Of a stretch of DNA of 64,000 nucleotides, positions 15,803 to 31,331 are shown piece after piece. How positions within the stretch are numbered: the first letter of the stretch is position 1; each line of letters begins with the position of its first letter. The translations under genes and the position numbers were made by a program. Source of the DNA: a candidate division KSB1 bacterium (GTDB lineage: Bacteria > Zhuqueibacterota > Zhuqueibacteria > Zhuqueibacterales > Zhuqueibacteraceae). The notes beneath the pieces are model-generated. The model saw nothing but the letters and a program-made list of their open reading frames with translations, was not told the origin of the DNA and did not search any database. The stretch spans positions 1 through 64,000 of the forward strand of contig JAPDQB010000009.1 of assembly GCA_034506175.1 (NCBI GenBank), read 5' to 3'.

Positions 15803-17545
15803 TCACCTAAACTGCATCATCATCCTCAACCCTTCCGTCGCCGCAATCAGCTCCTCCGTGCTCATCTTGCGAAACCGCTCCGGCAGCAAAGCCGGATACG
15901 AGCAATGCAACGCTGCCACGTGCATCTGAAATTCGCGTTCACGAACAATTGACATGCCGGCGCGCCAGGAGTCGAGCACTTGCAGCACGCTGATTTGCGG
16001 ATTTTTGCGGCGCGCGTGCAGCATTTCGGCGGTGAGGTTGCGAAAGTCGCGCGCAGAGAAGTTGGCAGTTTTGGCGATGAGCGCATCCCAATCAGCAGGG
16101 GAGAGGGCATCCAGCGGCACGCCTTTGCGTTTGAACAATTCGCGGATGAAAGCAACGCGCTTTTCGCCTTCGGGATCAAAGACGGCGATTTGAATCGGGC
16201 TGCGGCTTTTTACATCGGGGTCAAGCTCGTCGGGACGCGACGTCATCAAGCCCCACAACACTTTCACGAGATTGCGCTCGTCGCCCATCATTTGAATGAT
16301 GTTGCCGGCAAGCTGCTTCTCCGCCTCGTGCGTCGTGGGAGAGTGTACCGAGCCAAACGCCGTATGCGCTTCATCGACGAGAATGAGAATTTTGCCAAAC
16401 GTCAGCACGTACCAGCGGAACAACTCGAACATCACCGAAGTCTGGCCGTAGTACATGCTGCGCAGATTTTTGATGCGAATCACCACGCGGCCGGATTTGC
16501 CGGCATAGGCTTGCAACAGAAAAGTTTTGCCGCCTCCGTTCGGCCCGGAAACCAGCACCGCGGACACCGCGGTATCACGATGCTCGCAGCGCTCGAACAC
16601 GTCGTCTAGAATCTGCTTGTGCTCATCGTTGCCGATCACCGCGTCGGGGCCGAAGGCGGGAATCTCGACTTCGATGATGTCACCCAGATGCTCGCGCAGC
16701 AAATTGTTGATCTCGGCCAACAGCATGGCGCGCGTCACCGGTTTTTTCTCACTGACCGCATCTTCAAAAAGATCTTTGAGCACCTCCAGCGTGAGTCCGG
16801 CGCTGTCCGCGATAAATCTCTCCTTACCGCCTTCGAGTTGTAGAGCCTCGCCAAATTTGGGGTTTTTCAAAAAATGCTCAACGAACTGCCGCCGCTGTTC
16901 CTCGTCTGGTAAGGGAATGGAAATGCTTGCCGTATGCGGCAGTGCGCGCAGCAGGCTGTTCACTTCGGAGTTGGTGCGGTTGAGCAGAATGAAAAAATCT
17001 TTCTCTTCGCGAAATTCGGGTTGCGTCAGCCAGGCATAAAAAAACGCCAACCGGTTCTTGTCCAATTCCGGCAACCGGTTGATCTCGCCTTCGGGAAATA
17101 ATGTTCCCGCCAAACGCACAATAATGGCCAGCGGCTTCAACTCGGCATGTTTTTTCCGAAAGCGCACCATGCGTTCGGTGAGATGCTTCAACATCACCAG
17201 CGCCGCGAGAGATTGAAAGGTGTTGTTGGCGACAGCGTTGCGAAATTCCTCAAGCTCCTGCTCGCGAAATCCCTCCGCAGGCAAAAGATGCTCGGCGGAT
17301 TTCCACACGCGCGCAAAATCCAATTCGTCTTCTGGACTCAAAAACGAGATGCCGGCCATGTCGACGAACACAATGGTGAAATGCCCGCGCAGCGCGCGAT
17401 AGAGCACTTGATCCATCGGCGCAAACTCGTTCGTTGTCACATCCCAAAACGAATCGTGGATGTTGCCCGTCATCAGAATGACGTTCTTTTTGCGCTGGCG
17501 GTAGAGGCGATTAAGATCGTTTAAGAAATTGGGTCGGGTTGACAT
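15803..17545 (-). CDS. AAA+ ATPase, associated with the PspA/ABC cluster
   Basis: 580 residues. The N-terminal ~300 residues are a non-catalytic AAA-like region (RKKNVILMTGNIHDSFWD). The active AAA+ module follows, with Walker A GPNGGGKT near residue 334 and Walker B ILILVDEAH near 390, then SRSP and a helical lid. It is the last gene of the 15-kb minus-strand set that holds PspA, an ABC importer and vWA and SBP/OmpA proteins. AAA+ partners of PspA (such as PspF, or MoxR with vWA proteins) are known, so a remodelling role is plausible, but this family is not PspF. Confidence 0.75.
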   Translation of the reverse strand: MSTRPNFLNDLNRLYRQRKKNVILMTGNIHDSFWDVTTNEFAPMDQVLYRALRGHFTIVFVDMAGISFLSPEDELDFARVWKSAEHLLPAEGFREQELEEFRNAVANNTFQSLAALVMLKHLTERMVRFRKKHAELKPLAIIVRLAGTLFPEGEINRLPELDKNRLAFFYAWLTQPEFREEKDFFILLNRTNSEVNSLLRALPHTASISIPLPDEEQRRQFVEHFLKNPKFGEALQLEGGKERFIADSAGLTLEVLKDLFEDAVSEKKPVTRAMLLAEINNLLREHLGDIIEVEIPAFGPDAVIGNDEHKQILDDVFERCEHRDTAVSAVLVSGPNGGGKTFLLQAYAGKSGRVVIRIKNLRSMYYGQTSVMFELFRWYVLTFGKILILVDEAHTAFGSVHSPTTHEAEKQLAGNIIQMMGDERNLVKVLWGLMTSRPDELDPDVKSRSPIQIAVFDPEGEKRVAFIRELFKRKGVPLDALSPADWDALIAKTANFSARDFRNLTAEMLHARRKNPQISVLQVLDSWRAGMSIVREREFQMHVAALHCSYPALLPERFRKMSTEELIAATEGLRMMMQFR

Positions 17546-17550
17546 TTTTT

Positions 17551-17634
17551 CGTGTAACGTGTGACGTGTAACGGTCTTGGTTTTGAGACTGTTTGTTGTT
17601 CAAGGGGCGTGTAACGTGAGACGTGTAACGGTCT
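17551..17634. repeat. GTTACACG-family repeat, two copies
   Basis: The words CGTGTAACGTGTGACGTGTA and CGTGTAACGTGAGACGTGTA occur about 55 bp apart. They flank the 3' side of the four-helix-bundle pseudogene; another copy flanks its 5' side at 18121. Confidence 0.7.
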
Positions 17635-18080: not shown

Positions 18081-18120
18081 AACATCCTCCTTTCATGATT
18101 AAGAAAGTTTTTCAAACTAA

Positions 18121-18180
18121 GCACGTTACACGTTTCACGTTACACGTTACACGAAAAAAACACGTATCACGTTACACGTC
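18121..18180. repeat. GTTACACG-family repeat array
   Basis: Four copies of an ACGTTACACG-like word occur in 60 bp. The TAA stop codon of the ABC ATPase gene (18172-18174) lies inside it. Confidence 0.75.
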
Positions 18181-19059
18181 TTTCCATGAATCCGGATGCG
18201 ACAAATCAAACTCGCTGATGTGCTGTTTGTAGTCCTTGACAAAACCGCGCAATTTGACTTCTTCGAGAAGCTGGTTGAATTCCGGCGAATATTTGACCCG
18301 CGTGGCGGCCGGGCCGGGCAGTTTGCGATCCATCACGATTTTGGCGCCTTCGGCGGGGCCATCGTCTGTGGTGTAATAGGGCGACAGCACGATGATTCTG
18401 GTTCCGAGAAACAAAGCTTCTTCAAGGTCGTGGGTCACAAAGAAAATCGTCATCTCGAATTGTTCCCACAGCTCGAGCAGAAAGACTTGCATGTCTTCGC
18501 GCGTGCCGGGATCGAGCGCGCCGAACGGCTCGTCCATCAAAATGATTTTTGGTTTCATGATCAGCGCCTGCGCGATCGCCACGCGCTGCTGCATGCCGCC
18601 GGAAAGCTCGTGGGGATACTTGTTGGCGTGTTCGCTCAGTCGCATGCGTTCGAGAAATGTCGTGGCTTCGTTGACCCAGCTCTTATGGCGGCGCCGATAG
18701 CCGGGATACCAGAAATATTTTTCCAAGAAGTGAATTTGCTCCAGCTCCAAGCCGAAAATGATGTTTTCCAAAACCGTGAGGTGGGGAAAAAGCGAATATT
18801 TTTGAAAGACAATGCCGCGATCGCGATTGGGCGGACCGGCGATGATGTCGTCGATTCGCACCGTGCCGGATTTGGCGCGCTCCCAGCCGACAATGAGCCG
18901 CAACAGCGTGGTCTTGCCGCAACCGCTCGGCCCCACGACGGTGACAAACTCGTTGGGCCGGACTTTTAAATCAATATCGTTGAGAATCGTCGCCAGCTTG
19001 CCATCACGCGGATAGCGCTGGTACACGTCATCAAGTTTCACAACAAAGATATCGTTCAT
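18172..19059 (-). CDS. ABC importer ATP-binding subunit, nitrate/taurine/urea type
   Basis: 295 residues. Walker A is GPSGCGKTT (~43-51), the Q-loop is VFQKYSLFP, the signature LSGGMQQR, Walker B IILMDEP and the H-loop THD, all intact. The overall form is that of SsuB/TauB/NrtD ATPases, with an insertion of ~25 residues after the Q-loop (HFLEKYFWYPGYRRRHKS) and a ~45-residue C-terminal extension. It energises uptake through the permease encoded just upstream; the binding protein follows in the same transcript. The stop codon is contributed by a GTTACACG repeat. Confidence 0.9.
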   Translation of the reverse strand: MNDIFVVKLDDVYQRYPRDGKLATILNDIDLKVRPNEFVTVVGPSGCGKTTLLRLIVGWERAKSGTVRIDDIIAGPPNRDRGIVFQKYSLFPHLTVLENIIFGLELEQIHFLEKYFWYPGYRRRHKSWVNEATTFLERMRLSEHANKYPHELSGGMQQRVAIAQALIMKPKIILMDEPFGALDPGTREDMQVFLLELWEQFEMTIFFVTHDLEEALFLGTRIIVLSPYYTTDDGPAEGAKIVMDRKLPGPAATRVKYSPEFNQLLEEVKLRGFVKDYKQHISEFDLSHPDSWKDV

Positions 19060-19106: not shown

Positions 19107-19925
19107 TTATTGCTGCTGCCAGCGAAACCCCTTTTTCACCCACAACCGTAAAAGAAAATCCATCAAAAATGCCAGCAAGGCAATCCAAATCACATACGGA
19201 ATGATGATGTCCATTGCCAAATAGCGCCGCACGACGAAGATGCGATAGCCGAGCCCTTCGGTGGCGGCGATGGATTCGGCGGCGATGAGAAACAGCCACG
19301 CGCCTTTGAGATTGAGCCGCACCGAGTCCAGCGCTTTGGGAAAAATTTGCGGCAGCACGACTTTGTATGTCGCCTCAAAATCCGAAGCACCGAGCGTGAA
19401 GGCTTTGACGAATTGCTCCCGCGGAATTTCTTTGGCGCGCAAATAGGTGTCGAGCGTAATTGTCGGCACGATGCCGATGAAAATCAGCGCGACTTTCGCC
19501 GTTTCTTCCAATCCCAAAAGAATGAACAGAATCGGCAGCAAAGCGAGCGCCGGTATCTTGTCAAGAAAGGTCACGAACTTCAGGAAATTCGCTTCAAAGA
19601 ACGGCATCACGCCGAGGTGCAGCCCAAACAAGATTCCAACAATAGCAGCGAGCAAAACGCCGATGGCCAAGCGCCGCAAGCTGGCAGCGGTATCCACCCA
19701 AAGCCGAATCTTGCCGTCACGATCCGGCTCCGTTGCGGTTCGCCAAAAACCTTCGGCAAGTTGTTGCGGCGTGGGCGTGACTTTGTCGTCCGGATTTTCC
19801 TGATGGCGTTTTTCCGCAATGGCAAGGTAGCCGGCAACGATCACGACAAACGGCAGAACCGCCAACACGGTTCGCAACCAGGCCGGAAGCTCGGCGTAGA
19901 TGCCGAAGATGTTGCGCAGTCGCAA
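19107..19925 (-). CDS. ABC importer permease subunit, nitrate/taurine/urea type
   Basis: 272 residues with five or six TM helices in the BPD_transp_1 layout. The coupling (EAA) loop is visible as AFTLGASDFEATYKVVLPQIFPKALDSV in short pieces around residues 170-200. Start TTG at 19925 is supported by AAGGAG nine nt upstream. The N-terminal periplasmic loop (EKRHQENPDDKVTPTPQQL) fits the SsuC/TauC group. It lies between the ATPase (47 bp downstream) and the binding-protein gene. Confidence 0.88.
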   Translation of the reverse strand: MRLRNIFGIYAELPAWLRTVLAVLPFVVIVAGYLAIAEKRHQENPDDKVTPTPQQLAEGFWRTATEPDRDGKIRLWVDTAASLRRLAIGVLLAAIVGILFGLHLGVMPFFEANFLKFVTFLDKIPALALLPILFILLGLEETAKVALIFIGIVPTITLDTYLRAKEIPREQFVKAFTLGASDFEATYKVVLPQIFPKALDSVRLNLKGAWLFLIAAESIAATEGLGYRIFVVRRYLAMDIIIPYVIWIALLAFLMDFLLRLWVKKGFRWQQQ

Positions 19926-20053: not shown

Positions 20054-21148
20054 TCAAAGTTTACCCTCTGCCGCCATCTGCATGTACTCCGTCGAGAAGC
20101 GCATCTTCACGTTTTTCGGATTGCCCAAAATTTTTCCGTCGGGAAATTGGATGCCGACTTGATCGGCCGAGGTGGCGTTCTCGCCGAGCAACTTGTGCTC
20201 GAAGCAGAATTTGCGGACGAAATCCATGCTGCGGTACAGCTCGGGTGATTGCGTGAATGCAACGGCATCTTGAGCGCGATAGTACATCGCCGTGGTTTTG
20301 AGCTGCTGCTTGAACGACGCCGGCGTGGCGCCGGACAATTCCGCCATGCGCGCAATGGCTTTTTCCGCTTCCGGGCTGCGAGTGGACATGATGCCCATGA
20401 TCTCGTACCACGCGCCAGCCAGCGCTTTACCGAGCTGTGGGTTCTTTTTCAGCACCTCGGTTTTTACCACCAGCAAGTCGAGAATCTCGCCGGGAATCGC
20501 CGCCGAGTCGAACACGCGCGTCACACCGGGCGTTTGCTCGATTTCCAAAGCCATGGGATTCCACGTGACCACGGCTTTTTGCGAGGGGTTGGAAATGAAC
20601 ACCGGCGCAATATCCGCATCGCTGGTGTTGAGAATCTTGACGTCTTTCTCAGTCAGGCCATTGCCTTTCAATTCCAGTGCGCGCACGAGCAAATAATGCG
20701 ACACCGACAACTCCACCAGCGCCACCTGTTTGCCGCGCAGTTGCGGCACCTGCAAATTGTCGCGCGTGTAGAGCACGTCGTTGCCGTTTGAGAAATCGCC
20801 AACGACGACGATGGTGTTGTCAATTCCGGAAGCTGCCGGCATGTCGAGACATTCCATATTGGTCATTACACAGGCATCCGCCTTGCCGGCAACATACGCT
20901 TCGATGGAGGGAATGTAATCGGCCTGGCGCACCTCGATCTCGATCCCGTATTTATCCGCCCATTTTTTGATGATGCCAGACTCCGCCGCATACGGCCACG
21001 GCATCCAGCCGACGTAGATTGACCACATCAAGGTGAATTTTGGTTTTTTGTTTTGGGCGAAGCCGGCCTGATTCAACATGCCGACGATGCCCGTGAGCAG
21101 GATCAAACCAACGGCAATCAAGGCAAAAAACAATTTACTACGCTTCAT
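20054..21148 (-). CDS. ABC substrate-binding protein, putative urea/taurine type
   Basis: 364 residues with AGGAG before the ATG. A signal peptide or membrane anchor at ~8-30 ends near GFAQ. The mature protein opens FTLMWSIYVGWMPWPYAAESG, then YGIEIEVRQADYIPSIEAYVAGKADA, which is the NMT1/SsuA-like fold of the group found in urea-carboxylase regions of proteobacteria. No urea carboxylase or allophanate hydrolase lies in this window, so the ligand is open. It feeds the permease and ATPase encoded downstream. It is one of three binding-protein-like genes in the cluster. Confidence 0.85.
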   Translation of the reverse strand: MKRSKLFFALIAVGLILLTGIVGMLNQAGFAQNKKPKFTLMWSIYVGWMPWPYAAESGIIKKWADKYGIEIEVRQADYIPSIEAYVAGKADACVMTNMECLDMPAASGIDNTIVVVGDFSNGNDVLYTRDNLQVPQLRGKQVALVELSVSHYLLVRALELKGNGLTEKDVKILNTSDADIAPVFISNPSQKAVVTWNPMALEIEQTPGVTRVFDSAAIPGEILDLLVVKTEVLKKNPQLGKALAGAWYEIMGIMSTRSPEAEKAIARMAELSGATPASFKQQLKTTAMYYRAQDAVAFTQSPELYRSMDFVRKFCFEHKLLGENATSADQVGIQFPDGKILGNPKNVKMRFSTEYMQMAAEGKL

Positions 21149-21285: not shown

Positions 21286-22125
21286 TCAAATCTTCGGCCG
21301 GTCATTTCCGGTGCCCGCTGTTTGCTTGGCAGCCTCTTTTTCCGCCGGCGCGGCCTGTGCTTCCTTCTGTGCCTTGCGCGCGGCGAGCATCCTAGCGAAA
21401 ACATCGCCGCTTTCGGAAGAGCGGCCGGCCTCGGCATACATGGTGTCTTGCAATTCGACATTCGTGCCGGCCATTTTTTCCGTAACCCGCGCTTGCGCCG
21501 TCAGCCGGCGATTCTCTTCGAGCACCAGCGACACCGGCCCGTCTTCAAACGAAGTCTTGATGCCCATCAAACGATGATTGAGCTCGATGATGCGCTGCGC
21601 CGAGACGAAATCGGCAATCGCTTCGGCTTTCTTCGCCGGCAGCGACTGGATGTACGCCTGCATCTTGGTGAGCTGCAGCATGTATTTTTTCATGCTGTCT
21701 TCGTATTGCTTGATCTGCTCCGCCAGGCTTTTCTGCCGCTCTTCAACTTCGTTGATGCGGCTTTGAAAGCGCGTGAACGCGGCTTGATGCTGCGCAAAGG
21801 CGTCATTGTTGCCTTCGGCCTGCGCCTTTTCCGCCAGGGCCAGCGCCCCTTCGCGCTTTTTTAGCAGATCTTTTTCCTCGTTGTTCAGGCGCTCCAATTC
21901 GAGGCGCTTGGTTTCGATAACGTTCTCGACCTCGGCCACCGCAGACTCGAGCTGCTTGTATTCCTGCACCTTTTGATTCATCTCGATATCAAAGGCGTCG
22001 CGAATGCCGGAGGTCGAGCCGGTGAACTGTTTGTTGGCCGCGCGCACGAGGCCGAGCGCTTTGCGGACACGATAGAACGTGATGAAGCGCCACAACGCTT
22101 GTAGAATGCCAGGTTGTTCTTCCAT
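21286..22125 (-). CDS. pspA: PspA/IM30-family membrane-stress protein
   Basis: 279 residues, nearly all predicted helical with heptad-like charged/Ala patterns from ~45 to ~215 (EYKQLESAVAEVENVIETK, LAEKAQAEGNNDAFAQHQA). This is the PspA/IM30 (ESCRT-III-like) layout. The N-terminal segment is longer and less amphipathic than in E. coli PspA, and the C-terminus has an Ala/Lys/Glu-rich tail of ~40 residues. Such proteins coat and mend the inner membrane. Here it lies in one transcript with an ABC importer and SBP/OmpA proteins, not with pspBC or pspF. Confidence 0.75.
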   Translation of the reverse strand: MEEQPGILQALWRFITFYRVRKALGLVRAANKQFTGSTSGIRDAFDIEMNQKVQEYKQLESAVAEVENVIETKRLELERLNNEEKDLLKKREGALALAEKAQAEGNNDAFAQHQAAFTRFQSRINEVEERQKSLAEQIKQYEDSMKKYMLQLTKMQAYIQSLPAKKAEAIADFVSAQRIIELNHRLMGIKTSFEDGPVSLVLEENRRLTAQARVTEKMAGTNVELQDTMYAEAGRSSESGDVFARMLAARKAQKEAQAAPAEKEAAKQTAGTGNDRPKI

Positions 22126-22171: not shown

Positions 22172-23089
22172 TTACTTTCGATACAGAGTTACAATGAACT
22201 CCTCGCCGCTTTCAATGAAATCCGGTTCGCGCCCTCCCAATTTTTTCATTTCACGCACAACCATCGGAATGCCGCGACCGAGCTTTTCGACAAAGTGATA
22301 ATCCTGCAAAAATTTCATCAGAATCGGGTTGCGTGGAACGTGCGTTGATTCTTTCATTTTCTCGACCGTGACGCCATTCGGCAAGCGGCCTGGGCTGTGA
22401 ATTTCCAGACGATCCTCAAACAAAAAGATCCGCACATTGCCCATGAGGCCCCAACGACGATGCAGCAAGGCATTGACAATCAATTCGCGCAAAACTTTAT
22501 CTGGAAAAATGATTTGCTCCACTCGTTTCATGCCTTCAATTGTCGAAGCGCTTGGCAAATTCAAGCTCAACACGCGCTGCGCATCTTCGATGACTTGAGG
22601 CAATGGACCGCTTAAACTTTTTCGATCCAGCAGCTCGTCGCCAATCTCGTTTCCTTTAAAATGTGCAAACAAAACCTCACTTTGCGGCAAGAACCGTTCC
22701 GGTTGCAGGCCAAACATTAACATGCCCACGACAGTGGTCGAGTTGCCGGCTTGCGACAAAATGTCGAGATTTTCCAACAGCCGGTCGCGGGCTGTTTCAT
22801 CTTCGTCAGCGAGATTGATATGCGCCGGATGCAAATTGTGAAAATAATCGAGCAATTTTTGCCAATTCAAATCTTTCAGGCTTGTATTGGATATTGGCGT
22901 GGTCTCGTAATGAACCAGGCCGGAATCCTGAAACAGCCGCGAGAGTTCTTCGCCGAGCAAAATTTTGCCGCCTTGAAAATTGAGAAAAGAAACTATTTCC
23001 TTGGCTAAGTCCTCGGGCTTGACTTGCTCGGATTTAAATTCGAGATACGAGCTTTCGCCGGTCGCAATGAGATTTTTAAGTTCATTCAT
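22172..23089 (-). CDS. AlbA_2/Schlafen-like ATP-binding regulator with internal deletion
   Basis: The start at 23089 (MNELKNLIATGESSYLEFKSE) is preferred to the upstream in-frame start at 23116. The family begins with an AlbA_2 domain whose core runs from the ESxxLEFK motif through FxNxxGGxILxG and on to RxG. Here FLNFQGGKILLG is followed directly by EELSRLFQDSGLVHYE, which in relatives lies ~90 residues later; most of the nucleotide-binding domain is missing, yet the frame is kept. The rest (LRELIVNALLHRRW, GRLPNGVT, GRGIPMVVREM) is a normal HATPase_c_4 C-terminal domain. Activity is doubtful. Confidence 0.7.
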   Translation of the reverse strand: MNELKNLIATGESSYLEFKSEQVKPEDLAKEIVSFLNFQGGKILLGEELSRLFQDSGLVHYETTPISNTSLKDLNWQKLLDYFHNLHPAHINLADEDETARDRLLENLDILSQAGNSTTVVGMLMFGLQPERFLPQSEVLFAHFKGNEIGDELLDRKSLSGPLPQVIEDAQRVLSLNLPSASTIEGMKRVEQIIFPDKVLRELIVNALLHRRWGLMGNVRIFLFEDRLEIHSPGRLPNGVTVEKMKESTHVPRNPILMKFLQDYHFVEKLGRGIPMVVREMKKLGGREPDFIESGEEFIVTLYRK

Positions 23090-23132
23090 AAAGCACCCAA
23101 CGCGGACAAGCCGCAACCAAAAAGATTTGCTC

Positions 23133-23258: not shown

Positions 23259-24173
23259 CTAATTGGCCTTCTCGCCAGCCGCCAGGTAAATCTCATCTGC
23301 TGCACTCATATTTCTGATCCGCGTTTCCACCCGCCGCGCCGCTGCTACGGCCGTTTCCAGGCGCGTGATGGCATTATCGACGTTGGCTTTTGGCAAAGTC
23401 AGAGCGGATTCGGCGCCGGCAAATTGCATGTAGGCCTCTTCAAGGCTCGCTTCGCAGGCTTCCGCTTCGGCAAATAATTCAGCCAACGCGCTTTGACGCT
23501 GGCGATAAGAATTGATCCGCTGTTGATTCAACTCGATGCGGCGCTCCAGTGCGCTCGACTCACGATCGGTGGCGGTTTCTCGCAGCTTTTGTAATTGCTT
23601 CTGCCACTCCTGCACTTCGCGTTCGAGTTTTTCAGCGTTGATCTCCCGCAGCGCGCGCGTAATCTCCGCGGCGGTGCGCAGCACCTCGACGCCCTGAAAA
23701 TAGGTATCTTCGGCAAGTATCTGCAGCCGCATGGATTGCATGGACGCGCTTTGGGTTTCGCGCGCTTGCAAAAAGTTTTTGAACTTCTGATAAGCCTGGT
23801 GCAATTCCAGCGCGGCTTGCGCGCCGTCAGGATCATTTATCCGGCGAAACTCATCGCGAATGGCAACGATTTCGTTTTCGCGATTGGCGCGGCGCTGCGC
23901 CAATTGCGCGCGCACGTAATTTTGCGCCAGCTTTTCGCCGCGAATGAAATAGTTGAAGATGAAAGTTCCGACACTGAGAAAACCGGCGCCCACCGCGAGC
24001 AGGAGGGAGGCCTGATTGGCACCAAACGCCAGCATGTACAATCCGGACAAAACCGCGATCGCCGCGGAAAACGTCGTGAGCGGATGCTGCAAGGTTTCAG
24101 TCAAGATGTGTTTCTCGATGGCGCCGGGCGTCACATTTAAAGATTGAGATTTTGTCGGACTTTCAGAATTCAC
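23259..24173 (-). CDS. Two-TM coiled-coil membrane protein of the PspA cluster
   Basis: 304 residues. Two TM helices lie at about 35-75 (FSAAIAVLSGLYMLAFGA, LLLAVGAGFLSVGTFIFNYF). Residues ~80-300 form a long charged helix region with Glu/Arg/Gln heptads. No catalytic motif is seen. The position between the SBP-OmpA gene and pspA suggests a membrane anchor or docking partner for PspA. A short N-terminal tail faces the same side as the coiled coil, probably the cytoplasm. No named family is recognised. Confidence 0.7.
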   Translation of the reverse strand: MNSESPTKSQSLNVTPGAIEKHILTETLQHPLTTFSAAIAVLSGLYMLAFGANQASLLLAVGAGFLSVGTFIFNYFIRGEKLAQNYVRAQLAQRRANRENEIVAIRDEFRRINDPDGAQAALELHQAYQKFKNFLQARETQSASMQSMRLQILAEDTYFQGVEVLRTAAEITRALREINAEKLEREVQEWQKQLQKLRETATDRESSALERRIELNQQRINSYRQRQSALAELFAEAEACEASLEEAYMQFAGAESALTLPKANVDNAITRLETAVAAARRVETRIRNMSAADEIYLAAGEKAN

Positions 24174-24315: not shown

Positions 24316-25884
24316 TTAAAGCGTATTTTCTTCCACCAACACAAACTCGACGCGCGGCAGGCGATACTGATACGCACGCTCGGATTCATTCGGCAAGCGG
24401 GGGAGAGGCTGCGCTGAGCCCAGCCCCACGGCGCGCAAACGGTCGGGGTCGATGCCGTGCACCACTTCGAGATATTTTTTCACCGCTTCGGCGCGCTCTT
24501 GTGAGAGCTTGAGATCGGCCTCGGCGTCGTAACCGCGTGAGGTGTGGCCTTTGATCAAAACGCGATATTGTGGATAATTGTTGATGAGCGCCTGGGCGGC
24601 GGCATCGACTTCCAGCTTGCCGGCGAGAGCCAAGATGCCCGCGCTTTGCTGAAACGTTATCGGCCGGATCGCCATCGTGCCGATTTCGCGCAGCGCTTTC
24701 CATTGCCCATCGGAAAGCGAGGCGAAATCCTTTGGTGCGGTCGGTGGCGTGCCCAAGCTGGCGAGTCCGCCGCTCTGATAAAGCTCCGCCACAAAATCGC
24801 GGTTGGTGATGAGAAACGGATTGTTCTCCAGCGGATCGGCGCTCAGCTCGCCGTTGCGGATCATGATGTCGGTTATGGAGCGAATGGAGTTGATGATCTG
24901 CTCGTCACCGACAACGCCGCTGCTGCTGAGATTGAACCATTGCAGCGCATTCTCCGCGAGATCGGCATAATCGATTTTGTTCAGAATATGCTCGATGGCT
25001 TTCTCGTTGAAACCGGCGGATTTCGCAAACTCTTTGAGCATGCGCGGCCGGTCGTTGGTGTAAATCTGGATCGCGCGAAAATAGTCGCGATGAAACATTT
25101 TCACCAGTTCCGGACGCTTGCGGATGGCCTCGCGGCTGAACACGATGACGTCGATGATCAAGCCGCGCACCTGCTCGGAGCTGAAAATGACTTTGACGCC
25201 GTTGATTTGGAGCGCGCGCGACACATCCGGCTCCCAGAGAATCGCCACGTCGGCGAGCTTCTTTTGCAATTTTTCCAGCGCATCTTTTGAGCCTTGGGCT
25301 TCGACGCGCCATGGGCCGGAATAACGAAGCTGGTCGAGGCCGAAATGCACAACGGGAATGCTCAAGAGAAACGAGCTGGGCGAATCCGGCGTAAACGCGA
25401 TGCGCAGATTGGCGTTGTTCAGCGCATTAATTTTGATTTCATGGCCATTCGTGGCCGTTACGCGATCCGTATAGCCGACGATCGCATCCGCGCCTTTGGA
25501 CTCGCTGATGACGGCGGTGATGACGCCAGGAAATTTGTGTGCCGCGCCGTGAGTCAGATACGAGTTGATCGGCAGCACGATGAAATCATATTTGCCCGCG
25601 GCGAATTTTTGCAAGCGTTCGGCATACGCGCCGCCATCGTCCGTCCATTCGAGCAAAAAGCCCTGCTGCGCCAGCGCGCGTTTCATCTCGCTGGAGCGGA
25701 TGAATTCGTAGCCAATGTAATTGTCACCGGCGCCGGCAATTTTGCCTTGAATCTTCGCGGCATCCGAGGTGGCGACTTGGCCCTTGGCAAAAAAGCGGGG
25801 CGCGAGAAATTTCCACACCCCGATGGCCAATGCCCCTAAGATGAGCAGCAAAAAGACGCCGATGGTTGAGCGTTTGATGGGCAT
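24316..25884 (-). CDS. Membrane-anchored solute-binding protein fused to OmpA domain
   Basis: 522 residues. A single N-terminal TM helix (~10-30) with no cleavage site anchors the protein. Residues ~50-365 are a type-2 periplasmic binding fold (NMT1/PstS-like): GGAYAERLQKFAAGKYDFIVLPINSY, NANLRIAFTPDSPSSFLL, ADVAILWEP. Residues ~410-520 are an OmpA C-terminal domain with YRVLIKGHTSRG and LSQERAEAVKKYL, the peptidoglycan-binding signature. It probably links ligand sensing in the periplasm to the cell wall. A 115-bp copy of its 5' end lies at 27035, beyond the HEPN pair. Confidence 0.85.
   Translation of the reverse strand: MPIKRSTIGVFLLLILGALAIGVWKFLAPRFFAKGQVATSDAAKIQGKIAGAGDNYIGYEFIRSSEMKRALAQQGFLLEWTDDGGAYAERLQKFAAGKYDFIVLPINSYLTHGAAHKFPGVITAVISESKGADAIVGYTDRVTATNGHEIKINALNNANLRIAFTPDSPSSFLLSIPVVHFGLDQLRYSGPWRVEAQGSKDALEKLQKKLADVAILWEPDVSRALQINGVKVIFSSEQVRGLIIDVIVFSREAIRKRPELVKMFHRDYFRAIQIYTNDRPRMLKEFAKSAGFNEKAIEHILNKIDYADLAENALQWFNLSSSGVVGDEQIINSIRSITDIMIRNGELSADPLENNPFLITNRDFVAELYQSGGLASLGTPPTAPKDFASLSDGQWKALREIGTMAIRPITFQQSAGILALAGKLEVDAAAQALINNYPQYRVLIKGHTSRGYDAEADLKLSQERAEAVKKYLEVVHGIDPDRLRAVGLGSAQPLPRLPNESERAYQYRLPRVEFVLVEENTL
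25766..25884. repeat. Direct repeat, left copy (5' end of SBP-OmpA gene)
   Basis: This segment (first ~38 codons of the SBP-OmpA gene) is repeated at 27035-27149 with few changes; the middle ~75 bp look identical. The two copies bracket the HEPN pair. Confidence 0.85.
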
Positions 25885-25958
25885 GCTTGTTGCTTTTAAA
25901 AGTTAGCTTAAAAAAAATTGACTTACATAACATTGAACTATCATTGCAATTTATTATC

Positions 25959-26387
25959 TCAACTACGCAACCGGCGTTCATAATCGAGAATGCCCTGGCG
26001 AATCTTGTTGCATCGCGTTGGCGATTGGCGGGCGACGTCCAAATAATCAATTCCTATAGCAGCCGATTTAGCCAGCAAGGCACAAGTGTTGGTGTCGAGA
26101 AACGATTTATCCTCGAGATCATAATCCGCCGTCAAGCGATGTTTGTGCAACTGCGCCAGCAAGCGAGAAACCTCTTGCATCTGCTGATCGCCGCAATTGT
26201 TTAAGCGATGTCGAACTTCACCGTGAGCCTGCGGACCTTGGGAGCAAGGCACTTGTAAATCTTTGATAAAAGCTCGGCTTTCGTGAAAAAGAGCATAATA
26301 ACCGCGGCTTATTGCCGATCGCAGCAGCGCTTCCTCTTTGCGCTTCAAAAGATATTCAGAAGCCCTCAGAAATTCTCGTCCAGTCAT
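25959..26387 (-). CDS. HEPN-domain protein (UPF0332-like)
   Basis: 142 residues. SAISRGYYALFHESRAFI at ~24-41 is the core of HEPN proteins of the UPF0332 group (consensus SRxYYAxFHxAxA). A second helix pair carries LLAQLHKHRLTADYD, which includes the common HRxxADY turn. HEPN proteins are often ribonuclease toxins in two-gene modules. The partner gene lies 21 bp upstream in the same direction. The pair is bracketed by direct copies of the neighbouring core gene, so it looks like an inserted cassette. Confidence 0.8.
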   Translation of the reverse strand: MTGREFLRASEYLLKRKEEALLRSAISRGYYALFHESRAFIKDLQVPCSQGPQAHGEVRHRLNNCGDQQMQEVSRLLAQLHKHRLTADYDLEDKSFLDTNTCALLAKSAAIGIDYLDVARQSPTRCNKIRQGILDYERRLRS

Positions 26388-26408
26388 TTCTCAACTCTTT
26401 TAATGCGC

Positions 26409-26945
26409 TTATGCGGTGCCAAGCCCGCCGATGCCGAGTAGAATTTTATCGCTTTTGTCGGGCGGAAGTCGTTGAGCCATTAGACGATTAAAAAACAAAT
26501 ATTGTTCGAGAACGTTGTCAACCTTTCCGGAAACCTGGATGTTGATAGCGATCCAACTTTCATCTTCAACTTCCCAATCAAATTCATAAGCCAGTTTTAT
26601 CGTTTTTACCGAAGGAAAGCATTCGTGCACCAGGCGAAGCGCTGTTTCAAGGTGCGGGAAAAGCGCGTTTTTTCGGGCAAATTGCCAAACCGAATCAGGC
26701 ATTTCGACGCCGGCAATTTTTTTCGAAGCAGATAGCGGTCGCTCTTGCGTTTTGGATAAACGGCTTGAATAAGGCTTCAAGATTTTTGTGGCTTTTGCTT
26801 TGAGCGTTTGGGTGAGCACGCCATATTCCACCTGCGTCTCAGAAACCTTGTTCGGCCTCTGATGGATTTTTTCATCTCCCGCAGGATATCGTGACTTCTT
26901 TGCGGGCATTTCTTTATTTTTTCGCTGCATGGCAACGGGCTCCAT
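26409..26945 (-). CDS. Putative partner/antitoxin of the HEPN protein
   Basis: 178 residues. The first ~75 are basic and disordered in appearance (Lys/Arg/Pro/Ser-rich). Residues ~90-178 form an alpha/beta domain: FPSVKTIKLAYEFDWEVEDESWIAINIQVSG and VLEQYLFFNRLMAQRLP. Proteins with this domain frequently sit directly ahead of HEPN genes, as here. A role as antitoxin is inference from position. No DNA-binding motif is certain. Confidence 0.6.
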   Translation of the reverse strand: MEPVAMQRKNKEMPAKKSRYPAGDEKIHQRPNKVSETQVEYGVLTQTLKAKATKILKPYSSRLSKTQERPLSASKKIAGVEMPDSVWQFARKNALFPHLETALRLVHECFPSVKTIKLAYEFDWEVEDESWIAINIQVSGKVDNVLEQYLFFNRLMAQRLPPDKSDKILLGIGGLGTA

Positions 26946-27034
26946 TCACTCAATTTTGTTTTAGTTGATCACTCATCAAATGTAAAGAAATTCAACTGCA
27001 CATGCAACTAATCCCAAAATTTAGCGCATCGAAA

Positions 27035-27149
27035 GAGGCCGCTTGGCCCGTGGCAAAAAACCGGGTGCGAGAAATTTCCACACCCCGATGGCCAATGCCC
27101 CTAAGATGAGCAGCAAAAAGACGCCGATGGTTGAGCGTTTGATGGGCAT
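27035..27149 (-). pseudogene. Direct repeat, right copy: orphan 5' fragment of SBP-OmpA gene
   Basis: Read on the minus strand it still encodes MPIKRSTIGVFLLLILGALA, identical to the start of the gene at 25884, then runs into unrelated sequence. The 312-bp gap 26946-27257 holds this fragment and nothing else recognisable. Confidence 0.8.
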
Positions 27150-27257
27150 AACTGGTTGCCTGTTGCTGGTCGTTGGTTACAGATTACTTTAGGTTCGCCG
27201 AACCTTGAAAATCGCAGCGTTATCCTCGAAAATCATGCAGATCATCGCGGTTTATAT

Positions 27258-28094
27258 TCAGGTTGAATTCTCATTGAGATCATCTATGATAATTTGTTGA
27301 GTGTTTAGAAGACTGCGTGCCACAAGCTCTGTAAATGGGCTTAAATTCCCTGCATCGGCCAACCCCAGGGTTTCCAAATAAGCGCGTCTTTGCTCTTTTC
27401 TTATTATTGCCGGCACATAATGTTTTTTTATTAAAATGAGATTCATCAAAATTCTGGCACCGCGACCATTGCCATCATCAAAAGGATGAATCCGAACCAA
27501 ATTATAATGAGCCACTGCTGAAATCACAACGGGATGTTTGTGAACAAAAGATTCTTGTATCCATTTGAAAAGTTCGTTCATTTCTGCAGGGACATGTAAA
27601 GGTTCTGTATAGCGGTGGATAGTTCCGTCCGCTTGCAGTACATGGTTGGGTAATCGTTTATACTCTCCGGGGGTTGCAGGTTGTTGCACTCTTTGTCCCA
27701 TTTCATTGAGGGCTTCCGTATGGGTGATTCCTGACAACAATAATTTGTTAAATTCTTTCATCAATCCCGGTGTAATCGGACGTTCATCTTCAATAATTTG
27801 ATATAAATAGTCGATGGCCTCTGCATGGTTGCGTGCATCCAAGAAATCTTTGAAGGGTTTCCCTTCAACGGTCAAGCCTTCACGAAGAAAAAAATACGTT
27901 TCTCCTTTGGTTAATGTACTTCCTTCCAAGGCATTGGAATCGTAAGTCCACTCAATGCGTAATTTTTCCTGAATGGTCGACCAGATTGCTTCTTGAAAAG
28001 GCTTTTGTGAGTTGATTTTTTCTTGTAAGGTGTCAATCTCCTCGAGGAGTTGGGTCAATGACAAAGTCTCTTCAACATTGTAAAACTGCGCCAT
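27258..28094 (-). CDS. Fic-family AMP-transferase
   Basis: About 278 residues. ATG 28094 is chosen because AAAGGAGG lies 8 nt upstream; earlier in-frame starts overlap that site. The Fic motif HPFDDGNGRGAR is intact with catalytic His near residue 203. The N-terminal helix carries SNALEG (~residue 54), the (S/T)xxxE(G/N) inhibitory motif of class II Fic proteins, so the enzyme is self-inhibited. The Fic_N region EWTYDSNALEGSTLT is typical. Fic enzymes transfer AMP (or other groups) to target proteins, often acting as toxins. It interrupts the SBP/PspA gene set between the HEPN pair and the vWA gene. Confidence 0.88.
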   Translation of the reverse strand: MAQFYNVEETLSLTQLLEEIDTLQEKINSQKPFQEAIWSTIQEKLRIEWTYDSNALEGSTLTKGETYFFLREGLTVEGKPFKDFLDARNHAEAIDYLYQIIEDERPITPGLMKEFNKLLLSGITHTEALNEMGQRVQQPATPGEYKRLPNHVLQADGTIHRYTEPLHVPAEMNELFKWIQESFVHKHPVVISAVAHYNLVRIHPFDDGNGRGARILMNLILIKKHYVPAIIRKEQRRAYLETLGLADAGNLSPFTELVARSLLNTQQIIIDDLNENST

Positions 28095-28175
28095 CTTCAT
28101 CACCTCCTTTTTCAAGCAGATAAGATTTTGCCATACCCAGGGAATTCAAAGATCATCTGTGTCCTTGTGAATCAA

Positions 28176-28973
28176 TCACTGCTTCGATTCACTTGGCTGC
28201 CCCGCCAGCGCCTCAAACGCCTTCGCATCATAAAACTCCGTCTCCGCCACGGTCGCTTCGAGCGCTTTGGCCAAGTCTTCAAAATTATCCGCGGCGCGAT
28301 AAGAAACGGCGTATCGGCGCAGCGGATGATCTTCTTGGATGCACAAGCCGATGGCGTAAATCGGAATCGCTTTCTCGGTGGCAAATTCGGCAGCTTGTGG
28401 AAGGTCATCGGCGAGGCCGTCGGTGACGACGATGAGGCGGAACTCGCCGTAGCCGAGCTGCTTCTCGCGTTGGCGCGCCAAAACTTCGGCGCCGAAGCGG
28501 ATGGCTTCTGCCAATGGCGTGCCGCCGCCGGCTTCGACGGCGTTAATCGCCTGCAGGAAAGCGGCCATGTTATTCGATCCCAACGGCACGACTTCACGCT
28601 CGGCACGGCTGCGATGATTCTCGTCAAAAACATAGAGGCCGAGATTGACGTCTTCCGGCACTTTTTTGAGAAATTCCGCCACCGCCCATTTCGCGCCTTC
28701 GAGCTTGCGTTTGAAGGTTTGATCGCCGCCGCAGTCGCTGCTCAACGGATCGCGCATGCTGCCGCTGCCGTCGAAGATGAAATAGAAGTTGCGGGCTAAG
28801 GAAATTTGTCCGAGGTCTGAAGTTGCGATGTCCGAAGTCGGCCCGGTTTGCGCCGGGGTTTCGATTTTACCTGGATCGGCAGTCGAGGTTTGCTGATTTC
28901 GTTCTCGTCGTTCACAACCAACTGAAAGCAGAATCGCGAACAAGAAATAAACGAAATAGTTGAAGTTTTGCAT
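28176..28973 (-). CDS. vWA-domain lipoprotein
   Basis: 265 residues. The lipobox LLSVGC gives a lipidated Cys near residue 20. A Thr/Pro/Gln-rich linker runs to ~55. The vWA domain fills ~60-250 with an intact MIDAS: DGSGSM near residue 68, a Thr in GGTPLAEAI and TDGLADD later. MIDAS domains bind a metal and a protein partner. Lipidation puts it in the periplasm at the inner or outer membrane, near the two SBP-OmpA proteins of the same cluster, which could be its ligands. Confidence 0.85.
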   Translation of the reverse strand: MQNFNYFVYFLFAILLSVGCERRERNQQTSTADPGKIETPAQTGPTSDIATSDLGQISLARNFYFIFDGSGSMRDPLSSDCGGDQTFKRKLEGAKWAVAEFLKKVPEDVNLGLYVFDENHRSRAEREVVPLGSNNMAAFLQAINAVEAGGGTPLAEAIRFGAEVLARQREKQLGYGEFRLIVVTDGLADDLPQAAEFATEKAIPIYAIGLCIQEDHPLRRYAVSYRAADNFEDLAKALEATVAETEFYDAKAFEALAGQPSESKQ

Positions 28974-28992
28974 AATGTCATCAATGATTTTT

Positions 28993-29088
28993 TGAACGCG
29001 GATGACGCGGATAACACGGATTATTACGGATTTTTTAGAGGCGTTAATCCATGAAAATCCGAGTGATCTGCATCATCCGTGTTGAAAG
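28993..29088. repeat. ATCCGTG-family inverted repeat, diverged
   Basis: GACGCGGATAACACGGATTA on the left is mirrored by ATCCGAGTGATCTG and ATCATCCGTGTTG on the right. It fills most of the gap between the vWA gene and the small membrane protein. Confidence 0.65.
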
Positions 29089-29152
29089 CTCTTGCTGCCA
29101 TCGCGCAAACTCCATCAGCTCGGCTTCGATTTGTTTCAAGCGAAACAGTCCG

Positions 29153-29549
29153 TTACTCTTCCAGTAGTTTATCCCGAATTTGTTTAATGCTGGCTCTGGA
29201 CTTCTCTCGTTCTTCTGAGAGTCTTCGAACCTTCTCCTGGTTCACTGGTTTGTCCTCAAAGGCGTACAAATATTCGATGGTGCTTTTAATGTAATTCTGA
29301 ATTTCTGAATAGCTTTCTTCTCCAAGCCAAAATCTGTTTTTATTAGCCAAATCTATGAGTTCGCTCTGGAGGCTGTCGCTTTGCCTGAAAAGAGTTTTGA
29401 AAAATTTTCGATCTTCCTTCAAAACTCGTTATTTTTTCAACTACATTCGTCGCAAAGCTCCCCATCAATATCAAAAGTATGCCAATCAAAAACTTGTCGA
29501 CTGAAACCTTTATGAGTTCATCCTTTAGATTTTTATTGATGAATGGCAT
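29153..29549 (-). pseudogene. Small membrane protein with coiled-coil tail, apparently frameshifted
   Basis: The first frame (from 29549) encodes a TM helix (FLIGILLILMGSFATNVVEKI) and then becomes nonsense-like. The second frame (from ~29422) continues KFFKTLFRQSDSLQSELIDLANKNRFWLGEESY and ends in a charged helix. NNRFWLGEE-type sequences follow a TM helix and coiled coil in known single proteins, so one gene of ~130 residues with a one-base shift near 29420 is the best reading. Two overlapping genes remain possible. Confidence 0.5.
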
Positions 29550-29594
29550 TCAATTCATCCTCCTCAGCATGGCGTCGCGCCTTAATTGTCAAAC

Positions 29595-31331
29595 TCACTG
29601 AATCGGCATAAACTCGGTTGCTTCCGCTTCCACCTGTTTGAGGCGAAAAACGACGCGGCGATTGGCGGCCCATTCTTCGCGAGTTTTGGGCGGATTGTGT
29701 TTCGGATTCGAGATTCCCATTCCGGCTGCAACAAGGCGAGACTCGTCGAGCACGATGCCGCGTTTCTTGGCATAAGCCAAAAAACTTTGTATAACCGACT
29801 GGGCTCTTTCATACGAAAGATTCTTTGAAGCTTGAATCATTTGATTGATCACCGGTTGCGGCGAACCCTTTGCACGTTCTTGTAAAATCCGCTGCGGGTC
29901 GGAGTGTCCTTCAACAATAAAAAGCGCGCCGGCATACGTTTGCGCCAACTCCAGTGCTTTTTGGAAATCCGCGGCATATTTGCTCTCGGGAAAATCGTTC
30001 TGGTTCGGCTCGAAATTGATTTCGGTAAGAAAGAGCGTGCCTTCTTCGGCCCAGGTTTCGGTTTCGACAGCGAGCTTCTTTTCAACTTTCTTCGGATCGA
30101 AGGCGGGTTTGGCAAGCGTGACACCCGCAGTATTTTTCAGGCCAACAGCGAGTTTCGCATAATCCCAATTAGCGTGATTGAGCGGCGCTTTGGCGGAGAG
30201 CAGCCCGAGGCTTAGCAGTGAGCTTTGAATTTCATTGGTGAGGCGCTCGAAATTTCGCAGCGTGCCCTGGCCGGTGAAGAAGGCGACGTTGCCGGGATAG
30301 CCGACAAATTCGCAGTCGCCAAGCAACGCTTCGGCATCGGCGGTGGCTTGTGGGCTGCCGAGCAGAATGTCGGCGGCTTTGCCGAGCAGTTGCAGGTTTT
30401 CGGCTTGGCGGGAGGATTTTTGCTGCTGTAATTGTTGCAGCGCTTCTTGCGCGCGCAGCAGGCCATGCGTGAGTTTTTCGACTTCGCTGCGGTTGCGCTC
30501 GAGATAATCCGAGCGCACGGCGTAAACATCCGCGATGATGCGCGAGGCGGTTTTCGTTGTGAGCAAAATTTTGGCGCCCTTGACCGACATTTCCGCGCCG
30601 GTGCCGACGTTGCCGCCGGAGGTGAGCGCGAGCGCATCGGGAATGATGACCATCGCCGCGTCGATGGTTGGATCGACCCGCATGGCGCTGGCCGGATCGG
30701 TGGCAACGCCCTTGGTGTCGTAGGGAGGAAGCGTGAGATCGGGAAGCCAGGCGAGGGTGACATCACGAAATGAAAGGCCGTCGTCGGCTAATACTTTGCC
30801 GAGGTATTCAAGATGCGGACCATACGCTTGCAGCGCAATTTTTTTGCCGCGCAGGTCGCGCACGCGTTTGATGTTGCCGCGCACGACCATCGCATCGCCG
30901 CCGGTCGACCAGGTCAGTTGATAAAACGGCACAAGGTTGACGCCCTTCGCCGCGAAAGCCGCGCCTGCCAAGTTAATCATGCCCATGGTGCCGCGCAGAT
31001 ACGGCGTTTCGCCGTCCAAACATTTTTGTGCCTGGGTGACGAAATTGTCTTCGCGAAAAATTTCAATCGCCAGGCCTGCGTCATCAAAGATTGAGCCTTT
31101 TTGTGTCGAGGCGGCGCCATTCGCATAGATCGTGGCGATATCGCCGCCCCAGGTAATCACCGGCAGCTTCACCGCGCCAGCGCTGCGCACGGATTTGGCG
31201 GAACCGGCGAGGATGGCGCTCAACGATTTCGGCGTGTCAAGATACTTTGCTCGTTGCGCGAATGCTTCAGGCGCCGTAAAGCTACAGAGCAACATGACCA
31301 CCGCGAAATGATAAAAAAGCATGCGTTTCAT
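29595..31331 (-). CDS. Exported solute-binding protein fused to OmpA domain
   Basis: 578 residues. A cleavable signal peptide ends near EAFAQ. Residues ~50-400 are an NMT1-like binding fold: LPVITWGGDIATIYANG, YQLTWSTGGDAMVVRG, RDLRGKKIALQAYGPH. Residues ~440-575 are an OmpA-like domain: FIVEGHSDPQ, LSYERAQSVIQSFLAYAKK, NRRVVFRL. The layout equals the protein at 24316 but with a signal peptide in place of a TM anchor. It is the first gene of the minus-strand set, so promoter elements for the set may lie just upstream. Confidence 0.85.
   Translation of the reverse strand: MKRMLFYHFAVVMLLCSFTAPEAFAQRAKYLDTPKSLSAILAGSAKSVRSAGAVKLPVITWGGDIATIYANGAASTQKGSIFDDAGLAIEIFREDNFVTQAQKCLDGETPYLRGTMGMINLAGAAFAAKGVNLVPFYQLTWSTGGDAMVVRGNIKRVRDLRGKKIALQAYGPHLEYLGKVLADDGLSFRDVTLAWLPDLTLPPYDTKGVATDPASAMRVDPTIDAAMVIIPDALALTSGGNVGTGAEMSVKGAKILLTTKTASRIIADVYAVRSDYLERNRSEVEKLTHGLLRAQEALQQLQQQKSSRQAENLQLLGKAADILLGSPQATADAEALLGDCEFVGYPGNVAFFTGQGTLRNFERLTNEIQSSLLSLGLLSAKAPLNHANWDYAKLAVGLKNTAGVTLAKPAFDPKKVEKKLAVETETWAEEGTLFLTEINFEPNQNDFPESKYAADFQKALELAQTYAGALFIVEGHSDPQRILQERAKGSPQPVINQMIQASKNLSYERAQSVIQSFLAYAKKRGIVLDESRLVAAGMGISNPKHNPPKTREEWAANRRVVFRLKQVEAEATEFMPIQ

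What the first reader, a model, noticed from the sequence alone, without database searches (positions are those of the whole stretch)
15803..31331. PspA-ABC importer-SBP/OmpA-vWA-AAA gene set: candidate undescribed envelope-sensing system
Seen: on one strand lie two SBP-OmpA fusion genes, a vWA lipoprotein, a two-TM coiled-coil protein, PspA, a complete ABC importer (binding protein, permease, ATPase) and an AAA+ ATPase. Known: PspA/IM30 coats damaged inner membrane; OmpA C-terminal domains bind peptidoglycan; vWA MIDAS domains bind partners; taurine/urea-type SBPs bind small molecules. Inference: ligand binding in the periplasm, wall contact and membrane repair may be joined in one machine, with the AAA+ protein as its motor. 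There is no pspB, pspC or pspF, so this is not the classical phage-shock operon.
Basis: partly seen in the sequence, partly recalled or inferred. Interest (0 to 1): 0.8.

Follow-up and report, generated by a model that had tools for sequence, protein, structure and literature searches.

The report
PspA/TelA-linked ABC importer envelope operon
This is a real, widely shared bacterial gene set that joins a nutrient-type importer, wall-gripping binding proteins and an inner-membrane remodelling protein; part of it was noted in 2024, but relatives from many phyla show that the membrane protein (PspA) can be swapped for TelA, a protein of unclear function, in the same place.

Summary
Nine same-strand core genes lie at 15803-31331 in a candidate division KSB1 genome: SBP-OmpA1, vWA lipoprotein, SBP-OmpA2, TM-hairpin/coiled-coil protein (CC), PspA-family protein, TIGR03427 binding protein, permease, ABC ATPase and AAA+. 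Fic-, HEPN- and AlbA-type genes are interspersed. The clustering is not chance: 80 contigs from about 16 phyla keep the order OMPA1-VWA-OMPA2-CC-X-SBP-PERM-ABC, with the transporter block sometimes moved or missing. Slot X is PspA or TelA (PF05816), never both: 11 PspA, 37 TelA and 3 neither among 51 contigs with enough sequence. The tree needs at least two swaps. PspA-type operons carry a specific AAA+ with a degenerate AAA-like N-half and an intact C-half (15 of 16). "PspA" is right but divergent: it has no direct Pfam hit and is linked to PF04012 only through intermediates. "Undescribed" is only partly right: Ravi et al. 2024 noted PspA, double AAA+, ABC ATPase, permease and PBPB-OmpA together and proposed membrane remodelling linked to transport. 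I found no vWA or TelA in its main text. Best reading: a trans-envelope importer/sensor coupled to a PspA or TelA membrane effector. Function is inferred, not shown.

The parts
29595..31331 (-). SBP-OmpA fusion 1 (first gene of the conserved order; Sec signal, OmpA domain with the Asp/Arg pair)
   Evidence: NMT1 36.2 bits; OmpA-type matches of NCBIfam over the C-terminus; Asp 79/81 and Arg 79/81 conserved in relatives
28176..28973 (-). vWA lipoprotein with intact MIDAS motif
   Evidence: VWA_2 46.7 bits; MIDAS D-x-S-x-S, T, D conserved in 79-80 of 80; lipobox LSVGC seen in sequence
24316..25884 (-). SBP-OmpA fusion 2 (hydrophobic N-terminal anchor; OmpA domain has lost the Asp, kept the Arg)
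   Evidence: OmpA 52.7 bits, TIGR03427 35 bits over the SBP part; Asp position G/S/A in 65 of 69, Arg 69/69
23259..24173 (-). CC: TM hairpin followed by a helical, coiled-coil-rich domain, probably cytoplasmic
   Evidence: no Pfam family; same family as the Vibrio 257-aa protein; in 66 loci, 49 of 51 with enough sequence
21286..22125 (-). divergent PspA/IM30-family protein (slot X)
   Evidence: linked to PF04012 through intermediates, hhalign 95.9%, E 6e-9; AlphaFold helical architecture; Foldseek weak
20054..21148 (-). ABC substrate-binding protein, TIGR03427 ('putative urea' type)
   Evidence: 490.6 bits, cut-off 333.9; only full-length copy in the genome
19107..19925 (-). TauC/SsuC-like ABC permease
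   Evidence: PF00528 55.6 bits; TauC model 113 bits, below its equivalog cut-off
18172..19059 (-). ABC ATPase with intact Walker A, signature and Walker B motifs
   Evidence: PF00005 114 bits; motifs conserved in 49 aligned members
15803..17545 (-). AAA+ ATPase: N-terminal half a degenerate AAA-like domain without Walker A, C-terminal half intact
   Evidence: PF00004 47.3 bits on residues 330-454; N-half vs C-half hhalign 78.7%, E 1.7e-5, reversed control 0.1%
22172..23116 (-). AlbA_2/HATPase_c_4 gene inside the operon, not core
   Evidence: PF04326 and PF13749; longer homologue (407 aa) in the same position in the sister KSB1 genome, not elsewhere
25790..28115 (-). insert region with Fic, unknown and HEPN-like genes; 95-bp copy of the SBP-OmpA2 start at both 25790-25884 and 27055-27149
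   Evidence: Fic 65.6 bits, HEPN 18.7 bits, below its cut-off; direct repeat 97%

Best explanation
The genes encode one trans-envelope machine. SHOWN: conserved co-inheritance and order, intact active motifs of the ABC ATPase and of the AAA+ C-half, intact vWA MIDAS, an intact peptidoglycan-binding pair in OmpA1 only, and PspA or TelA in one slot. INFERRED: SBP-OmpA1 (wall-bound) and SBP-OmpA2 (membrane-anchored) with the vWA lipoprotein sample a small ligand and/or wall-membrane spacing in the periplasm and work with the TIGR03427 binding protein and the single-permease ABC importer. CC, a membrane hairpin with a helical domain on the cytoplasmic side, is the docking site for the cytoplasmic effector. 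In the window that effector is a divergent PspA, which would polymerise on or stabilise the inner membrane, and the companion AAA+ would disassemble it, as Vps4 does for ESCRT-III. In most relatives TelA fills the same role with no such AAA+. The output is protection or remodelling of the inner membrane around, or in response to, the importer complex.
For: Order conserved in contigs of about 16 phyla. With at least 4.5 kb downstream, vWA follows in 62/63 and SBP-OmpA2 in 62/63; with at least 8 kb, CC is present in 49/51 and PspA or TelA in 48/51, never both (with L062 and L074 corrected to TelA). TelA confirmed by PF05816 in 34/34 scanned. At least two PspA/TelA swaps on the tree. The degenerate-N AAA+ is in 15 of 16 PspA-type loci with enough sequence; degenerate N-half supported. 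Motif conservation. PspA assignment. No enzyme family recurs in more than a few flanks, so a dedicated nutrient pathway is unlikely. TelA and PspA are both linked to envelope stress: pspA and xpaC-yaaN are in the B. subtilis sigma-W regulon (PMC3498285); a Listeria telA disruption raises nisin sensitivity (cited in PMC12791056). PspA is an ESCRT-III superfamily member (PMC8281802, listed).
Against: No expression, interaction or phenotype data. Ligand unknown; TIGR03427 is named as a putative urea binding protein, so the importer could be ordinary uptake. The PspA fold test was weak: no Foldseek hit at E<=0.001. CC showed no homology to XpaC, PspA or TelA. Three of 51 loci have neither PspA nor TelA, and 10 of 45 lack a complete SBP/PERM/ABC set in the stretch held, so the transporter may be dispensable.
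Confidence: 0.55

Rival explanations
1. A dedicated uptake system for one nitrogen- or sulfur-containing small molecule (urea/guanidine/taurine type). The OmpA fusions keep binding proteins near the wall; PspA or TelA only protects against the membrane load of the transporter.
For: Binding protein over the TIGR03427 cut-off; importer motifs intact; two further SBP-type domains in the operon.
Against: No catabolic enzyme family recurs in the flanks of the loci; no second full-length TIGR03427 copy in the genome; no riboswitch in the window; the most constant genes are OmpA1, vWA, OmpA2 and CC, not the transporter.
Confidence: 0.25
2. A conflict or defence system: a wall-anchored sensor with a membrane effector (compare ZorB's MotB/OmpA-type part), lying in a patch that also gained Fic, HEPN and AlbA-type genes.
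For: Patchy distribution, 2 of 82 genomes of the phylum; presence on Vibrio megaplasmids; defence-type genes inserted; weak ZorB hits on the OmpA parts.
Against: PADLOC gives no specific hit to any core gene; a complete importer is unusual for defence; inserted genes are particular to the KSB1 pair; flanks of the other loci show no widely shared defence gene.
Confidence: 0.1
3. The PspA/TelA slot is a loose passenger: both are general stress genes that happened to be captured, and the working unit is only OmpA1-vWA-OmpA2-CC with the importer.
For: At least two replacements on the tree; 3 of 51 loci have neither.
Against: 48 of 51 loci keep one of the two; the slot gene is nearly always next to CC, the exceptions being a few loci with TelA at the operon end; the PspA version travels with its own AAA+.
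Confidence: 0.1

Closest known systems
PspA/Snf7 + double-AAA+ + ABC ATPase + permease + PBPB-OmpA operons (Ravi et al. 2024, mSystems, PMC11237479)
   Same: PspA-family protein, AAA+ with degenerate N-terminal copy, ABC ATPase, permease, SBP-OmpA protein in one operon; same proposed link of membrane remodelling with solute transport. A short form like this was found in L137.
   Different: The main text mentions no vWA, TelA or XpaC (word search of main text only) and speaks of one PBPB-OmpA protein. Here there are two distinct ones, a vWA lipoprotein, a constant CC protein, and a TelA-bearing majority form without this AAA+.
XpaC-TelA (YaaN) pair of Bacillota and Alphaproteobacteria
   Same: TelA encoded beside a membrane protein with a helical domain; TelA seen next to XpaC in five of eight loci.
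   Different: CC is not detectably homologous to XpaC (hhalign 20.5%, 46 columns); no SBP-OmpA, vWA or importer is part of that pair as far as known.
Classical psp (pspABC-F) and B. subtilis pspA-ydjGHI
   Same: A PspA-family effector on the cytoplasmic face of the membrane.
   Different: No PspB, PspC or PspF among the operon genes scanned; PspA is highly divergent and paired with an AAA+ and an importer.
Tau/Ssu/TIGR03427 ABC importers
   Same: Binding protein, permease and ATPase of that superfamily with intact motifs.
   Different: Two extra SBP domains fused to OmpA; no recurrent catabolic enzyme.
ESCRT-III/Vps4 (Cdv)
   Same: An ESCRT-III-superfamily protein paired with an AAA+ ATPase.
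   Different: The AAA+ is not Vps4: no MIT domain was recognised, and it has a degenerate AAA-like N-half.

Membership tests
PspA/IM30 (PF04012) | direct match to the family profile above its cut-off | tested here: not met
   no hit for the window protein or any of 11 close members
PspA/IM30 (PF04012) | homology through intermediates | tested here: met
   A4 profile finds L129-L132 in Acidobacteriota (E 1.6e-29 to 8e-7); the protein in L137 scores 66.3 bits with PF04012; hhalign of the extended family without L137 vs PF04012 95.9%, E 6e-9, reversed control 14%, E 0.002
PspA/IM30 (PF04012) | ESCRT-III-like long helical hairpin fold | tested here: inconclusive
   AlphaFold pLDDT 74, pTM 0.60, helices 38-103 and 107-161; Vipp1 and ESCRT-III among the top 50 Foldseek hits but none at E<=0.001
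PspA/IM30 (PF04012) | polymerises on and remodels membranes | not testable with these tools
   needs biochemistry
Ravi 2024 PspA-AAA-ABC-PBPB/OmpA neighbourhood | PspA/Snf7-family gene with ABC ATPase, permease and SBP-OmpA in one operon | tested here: met
Ravi 2024 PspA-AAA-ABC-PBPB/OmpA neighbourhood | AAA+ with two AAA domains, N-terminal one inactive | tested here: met
   Walker A/B only in the C-half; N-half vs C-half hhalign 78.7%, E 1.7e-5, reversed 0.1%
Ravi 2024 PspA-AAA-ABC-PBPB/OmpA neighbourhood | homology to their named example OGG56892.1 | not tested
   that record was not available by accession here; supplementary tables could not be read
Classical psp operon | pspB, pspC, pspF with pspA | tested here: not met
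   none among the operon proteins scanned with Pfam
TIGR03427 ABC importer | binding protein above the curated cut-off | tested here: met
   490.6 vs 333.9 bits
TIGR03427 ABC importer | urea/guanidine carboxylase pathway nearby | tested here: inconclusive
   no large recurrent enzyme family among unassigned neighbours of the loci and none among the window genes scanned; a direct search for the carboxylase was not made
OmpA C-terminal peptidoglycan-binding domain | conserved Asp and Arg of the diaminopimelate-binding pair (from general knowledge of OmpA) | tested here: met
   SBP-OmpA1: Asp 79/81, Arg 79/81; SBP-OmpA2 lacks the Asp in most (Arg 69/69), so for OmpA2 it is only half met
vWA MIDAS | DxSxS...T...D metal-binding motif | tested here: met
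   D 80/80, S 79/80, S 79/80, T 80/80, D 79/80
XpaC (PF10112) | CC protein homologous to PF10112 | tested here: not met
   no Pfam hit in 37 members; hhalign 20.5% over 46 columns

The most novel reading that the evidence does not exclude
PspA and TelA are interchangeable effectors of one conserved trans-envelope importer/sensor (OmpA1-vWA-OmpA2-CC core). This would mean that TelA, known mainly for tellurite and bacteriocin tolerance, is a functional stand-in for PspA at the inner membrane, recruited by a membrane-hairpin protein, and that the PspA form needs its own AAA+ recycler while the TelA form does not.
Probability: 0.4. Interest if true: 0.75.

Novelty: new variant of a known kind. Interest (0 to 1): 0.5.

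Why it matters
PspA homologues without pspBC have no known sensor, and TelA has no established mechanism. A conserved operon in which PspA and TelA take the same place beside a wall-contacting binding-protein array and an importer gives a concrete sensor-to-effector chain and a direct hypothesis for TelA: that it acts like PspA. It occurs in cultured species of both types (Acanthopleuribacter pedis and Sulfidibacter corallicola with PspA; Pleionea sediminis and environmental Vibrio with TelA), so it can be tested.

Tried and rejected
(1) TelA as a PspA homologue: hhalign 0.3-0.7%; AlphaFold model of low confidence (pLDDT 65) and no ESCRT-III or PspA among its top 50 PDB hits. So a non-homologous replacement is the default reading. 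(2) CC as XpaC, PspA or TelA: rejected. The first XpaC alignment used wrong ORFs for several loci and was redone. (3) Direct PDB sequence matches for PspA-like, TelA and CC: none useful. (4) My iterated AAA+ profile drifted: the AAA+ proteins next to about 17 TelA-type operons are of other subtypes by alignment, so they are not counted as the same gene. (5) The profile for the free binding protein also draws in the SBP-OmpA proteins; assignment was by best score. (6) Riboswitch, tRNA: none. Promoter/terminator scans are not informative. (8) A PADLOC scan of the inserted genes failed on a wrong coordinate and was not repeated.
Full report
OBSERVATION. In transcription order: SBP-OmpA1 29595-31331, vWA lipoprotein 28176-28973, SBP-OmpA2 24316-25884, a TM-hairpin/coiled-coil protein here called CC 23259-24173, PspA-like 21286-22125, TIGR03427 binding protein 20054-21148, permease 19107-19925, ABC ATPase 18172-19059, AAA+ 15803-17545. 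Between them lie genes that are not core: Fic, an unknown 178-aa protein, a HEPN-like protein, and an AlbA_2/HATPase_c_4 protein.

HOST AND DISTRIBUTION. The nearest relative is a candidate division KSB1 MAG (L007 = G002; 95% identity for the PspA-like protein). Of the 82 genomes of the window's phylum, only two, the window's own and this sister of the same genus, carry the SBP-OmpA2 gene, so the operon is patchy and probably horizontally spread. A tblastn search found the same gene order on Vibrio megaplasmids: ABC ATPase, SBP-OmpA1, vWA, SBP-OmpA2, a hypothetical 257-aa protein, 'toxic anion resistance protein' (TelA), 'putative urea' binding protein, permease.

RECURRENCE. One scan of 84,980 species' genomes with an SBP-OmpA1 alignment gave 80 loci from KSB1, Acidobacteriota, Aminicenantes, Poribacteria, Bacteroidota, Chloroflexota, Melainabacteria, Parcubacteria, Thermodesulfobacteriota, Pseudomonadota, Myxococcota, Bdellovibrionota, Nitrospinota, Nitrospirota, Spirochaetota and Verrucomicrobiota. 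Many are MAGs, so single placements may be wrong; cultured species include Sulfidibacter corallicola, Acanthopleuribacter pedis, Pleionea sediminis and Vibrio. Home-made profiles mapped every gene. Among loci with at least 4.5 kb downstream of SBP-OmpA1, vWA follows in 62/63 and SBP-OmpA2 in 62/63. Among 51 with at least 8 kb, CC is present in 49, TelA in 35, PspA-like in 11, both in none. Two of the five with 'neither' hold a divergent TelA (71.7 and 32.7 bits against PF05816), giving 37 TelA, 11 PspA, 3 neither. A complete binding protein, permease and ATPase set is in 35 of 45 with at least 9.5 kb; it may sit upstream, downstream or be missing.

SLOT X. The Vibrio 257-aa protein and the window CC are one family. 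After CC comes PspA-like or TelA. A tree of OmpA1+vWA+OmpA2 (quick method, SH-aLRT support) needs at least two changes between the two states: a TelA-bearing set (L015, L077, L080) lies inside the PspA-bearing set, and starred branches force two. TelA membership was verified for 34 of 34 scanned. TelA and PspA-like are not detectably homologous.

IS IT PspA? Directly, no profile sees it: no PF04012 match in the whole window genome or in 11 close relatives, although other host genomes do carry standard PspA genes elsewhere (20 of 30). A search in Acidobacteriota with the family profile found four divergent members; their surroundings show the full operon in L134 and L136 and a short form, AAA-unknown-PspA-SBP/OmpA-permease-ABC, in L137. 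L137's protein is a PF04012 member (66.3 bits). With the intermediates but without L137, hhalign against PF04012 gives 95.9% and E 6e-9, reversed control 14% and E 0.002; with L137, 97.3% and E 2e-11. The AlphaFold model has the expected long helical hairpin; Foldseek is only suggestive (Vipp1 at ranks 3, 9, 15 and 42 and Asgard ESCRT-IIIB at rank 37, none at E<=0.001). I accept a divergent PspA-family member.

AAA+. Walker A and B occur only in the C-terminal half; the N-terminal half aligns to the C-terminal half over 144 columns (78.7%, E 1.7e-5; reversed control 0.1%). This AAA+ is in 15 of 16 PspA-type loci with sequence available (L016 is the exception). AAA+ genes near about 17 TelA-type operons are other subtypes.

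MOTIFS. The ABC ATPase motifs, the vWA MIDAS and the OmpA1 Asp/Arg pair are nearly invariant; OmpA2 keeps Arg (69/69) but has Gly/Ser/Ala for Asp in most. So the two OmpA domains are not equivalent: OmpA1 is the likely peptidoglycan binder (inference from the known OmpA pair). OmpA2 has an N-terminal hydrophobic segment in 67/69 and no lipobox; in the window it looks like an uncleaved anchor (inference).

MECHANISM. See Best explanation. Steps shown: linkage, order, alternation, motif integrity. Steps inferred: ligand or spacing sensing, docking of PspA/TelA on CC, AAA+ as PspA recycler, membrane protection. Envelope-stress links of both effectors come from papers: pspA and xpaC-yaaN in the sigma-W regulon (PMC3498285); telA/lmo1967 disruption and nisin sensitivity (cited in PMC12791056).

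KNOWN OR NEW. Ravi et al. 2024 (PMC11237479, section 18) describe PspA or TM-bearing Snf7 homologues with a two-domain AAA+ (N-terminal copy inactive), ABC ATPase, permease and a PBPB-OmpA protein, and suggest that membrane remodelling is linked to solute transport. The words vWA, TelA, toxic anion, tellurite and XpaC do not occur in that main text; its supplements could not be read, and searches of the held library found no other description. What seems new is the larger constant core (two non-equivalent SBP-OmpA proteins, vWA, CC), the TelA majority form, and the PspA/TelA alternation tied to presence of the AAA+.

SCORE. Real and conserved: about 0.97. Mechanism as stated: 0.55. New variant of a known kind; interest 0.5.

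Noticed in passing
window 25790-25884 and 27055-27149: A 95-bp direct repeat (97%) of the start of SBP-OmpA2, 1265 bp apart, brackets a HEPN-like gene and an unknown gene, a duplication scar inside the operon; the sister genome L007 has a partly different cargo at the same spot and a duplicated vWA fragment at 13694-13839.
   Followed up: partly
window 22172-23116: AlbA_2/HATPase_c_4 gene between CC and PspA; about 240 bp shorter inside than the 407-aa copy in the sister genome.
   Followed up: partly
window 9362-11272: Caspase-fold (Peptidase C14, 42.2 bits) protein upstream on the plus strand, near DUF4384 (11645-12550) and LPP20-type lipoprotein (13371-13940) genes.
   Followed up: no
L017 and L021: Acanthopleuribacter pedis carries the operon on two scaffolds with identical sequence in the tree genes; true duplication or assembly artefact.
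   Followed up: no
L028:10480-11520, also L024, L040, L062, L073, L075, L083, L086: A 340-aa protein family without a Pfam match in two members scanned (motif CRWSRCLGC) recurs beside eight operons, mostly Thermodesulfobacteriota and Spirochaetota.
   Followed up: partly
L137:6671-13282: Short operon AAA-u228-PspA-SBP/OmpA-permease-ABC in an Acidobacteriota genome; its PspA is a clear PF04012 member.
   Followed up: yes
G000 whole genome: The KSB1 genome has no standard PspA (PF04012) at all and no TelA above cut-off; the operon copy is its only PspA-like gene found.
   Followed up: yes
L033, L041, L042, L050, L054, L059, L061, L067, L070: AAA+ genes of other subtypes, several Ycf46-like by eye, are divergently transcribed next to TelA-type operons.
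   Followed up: partly
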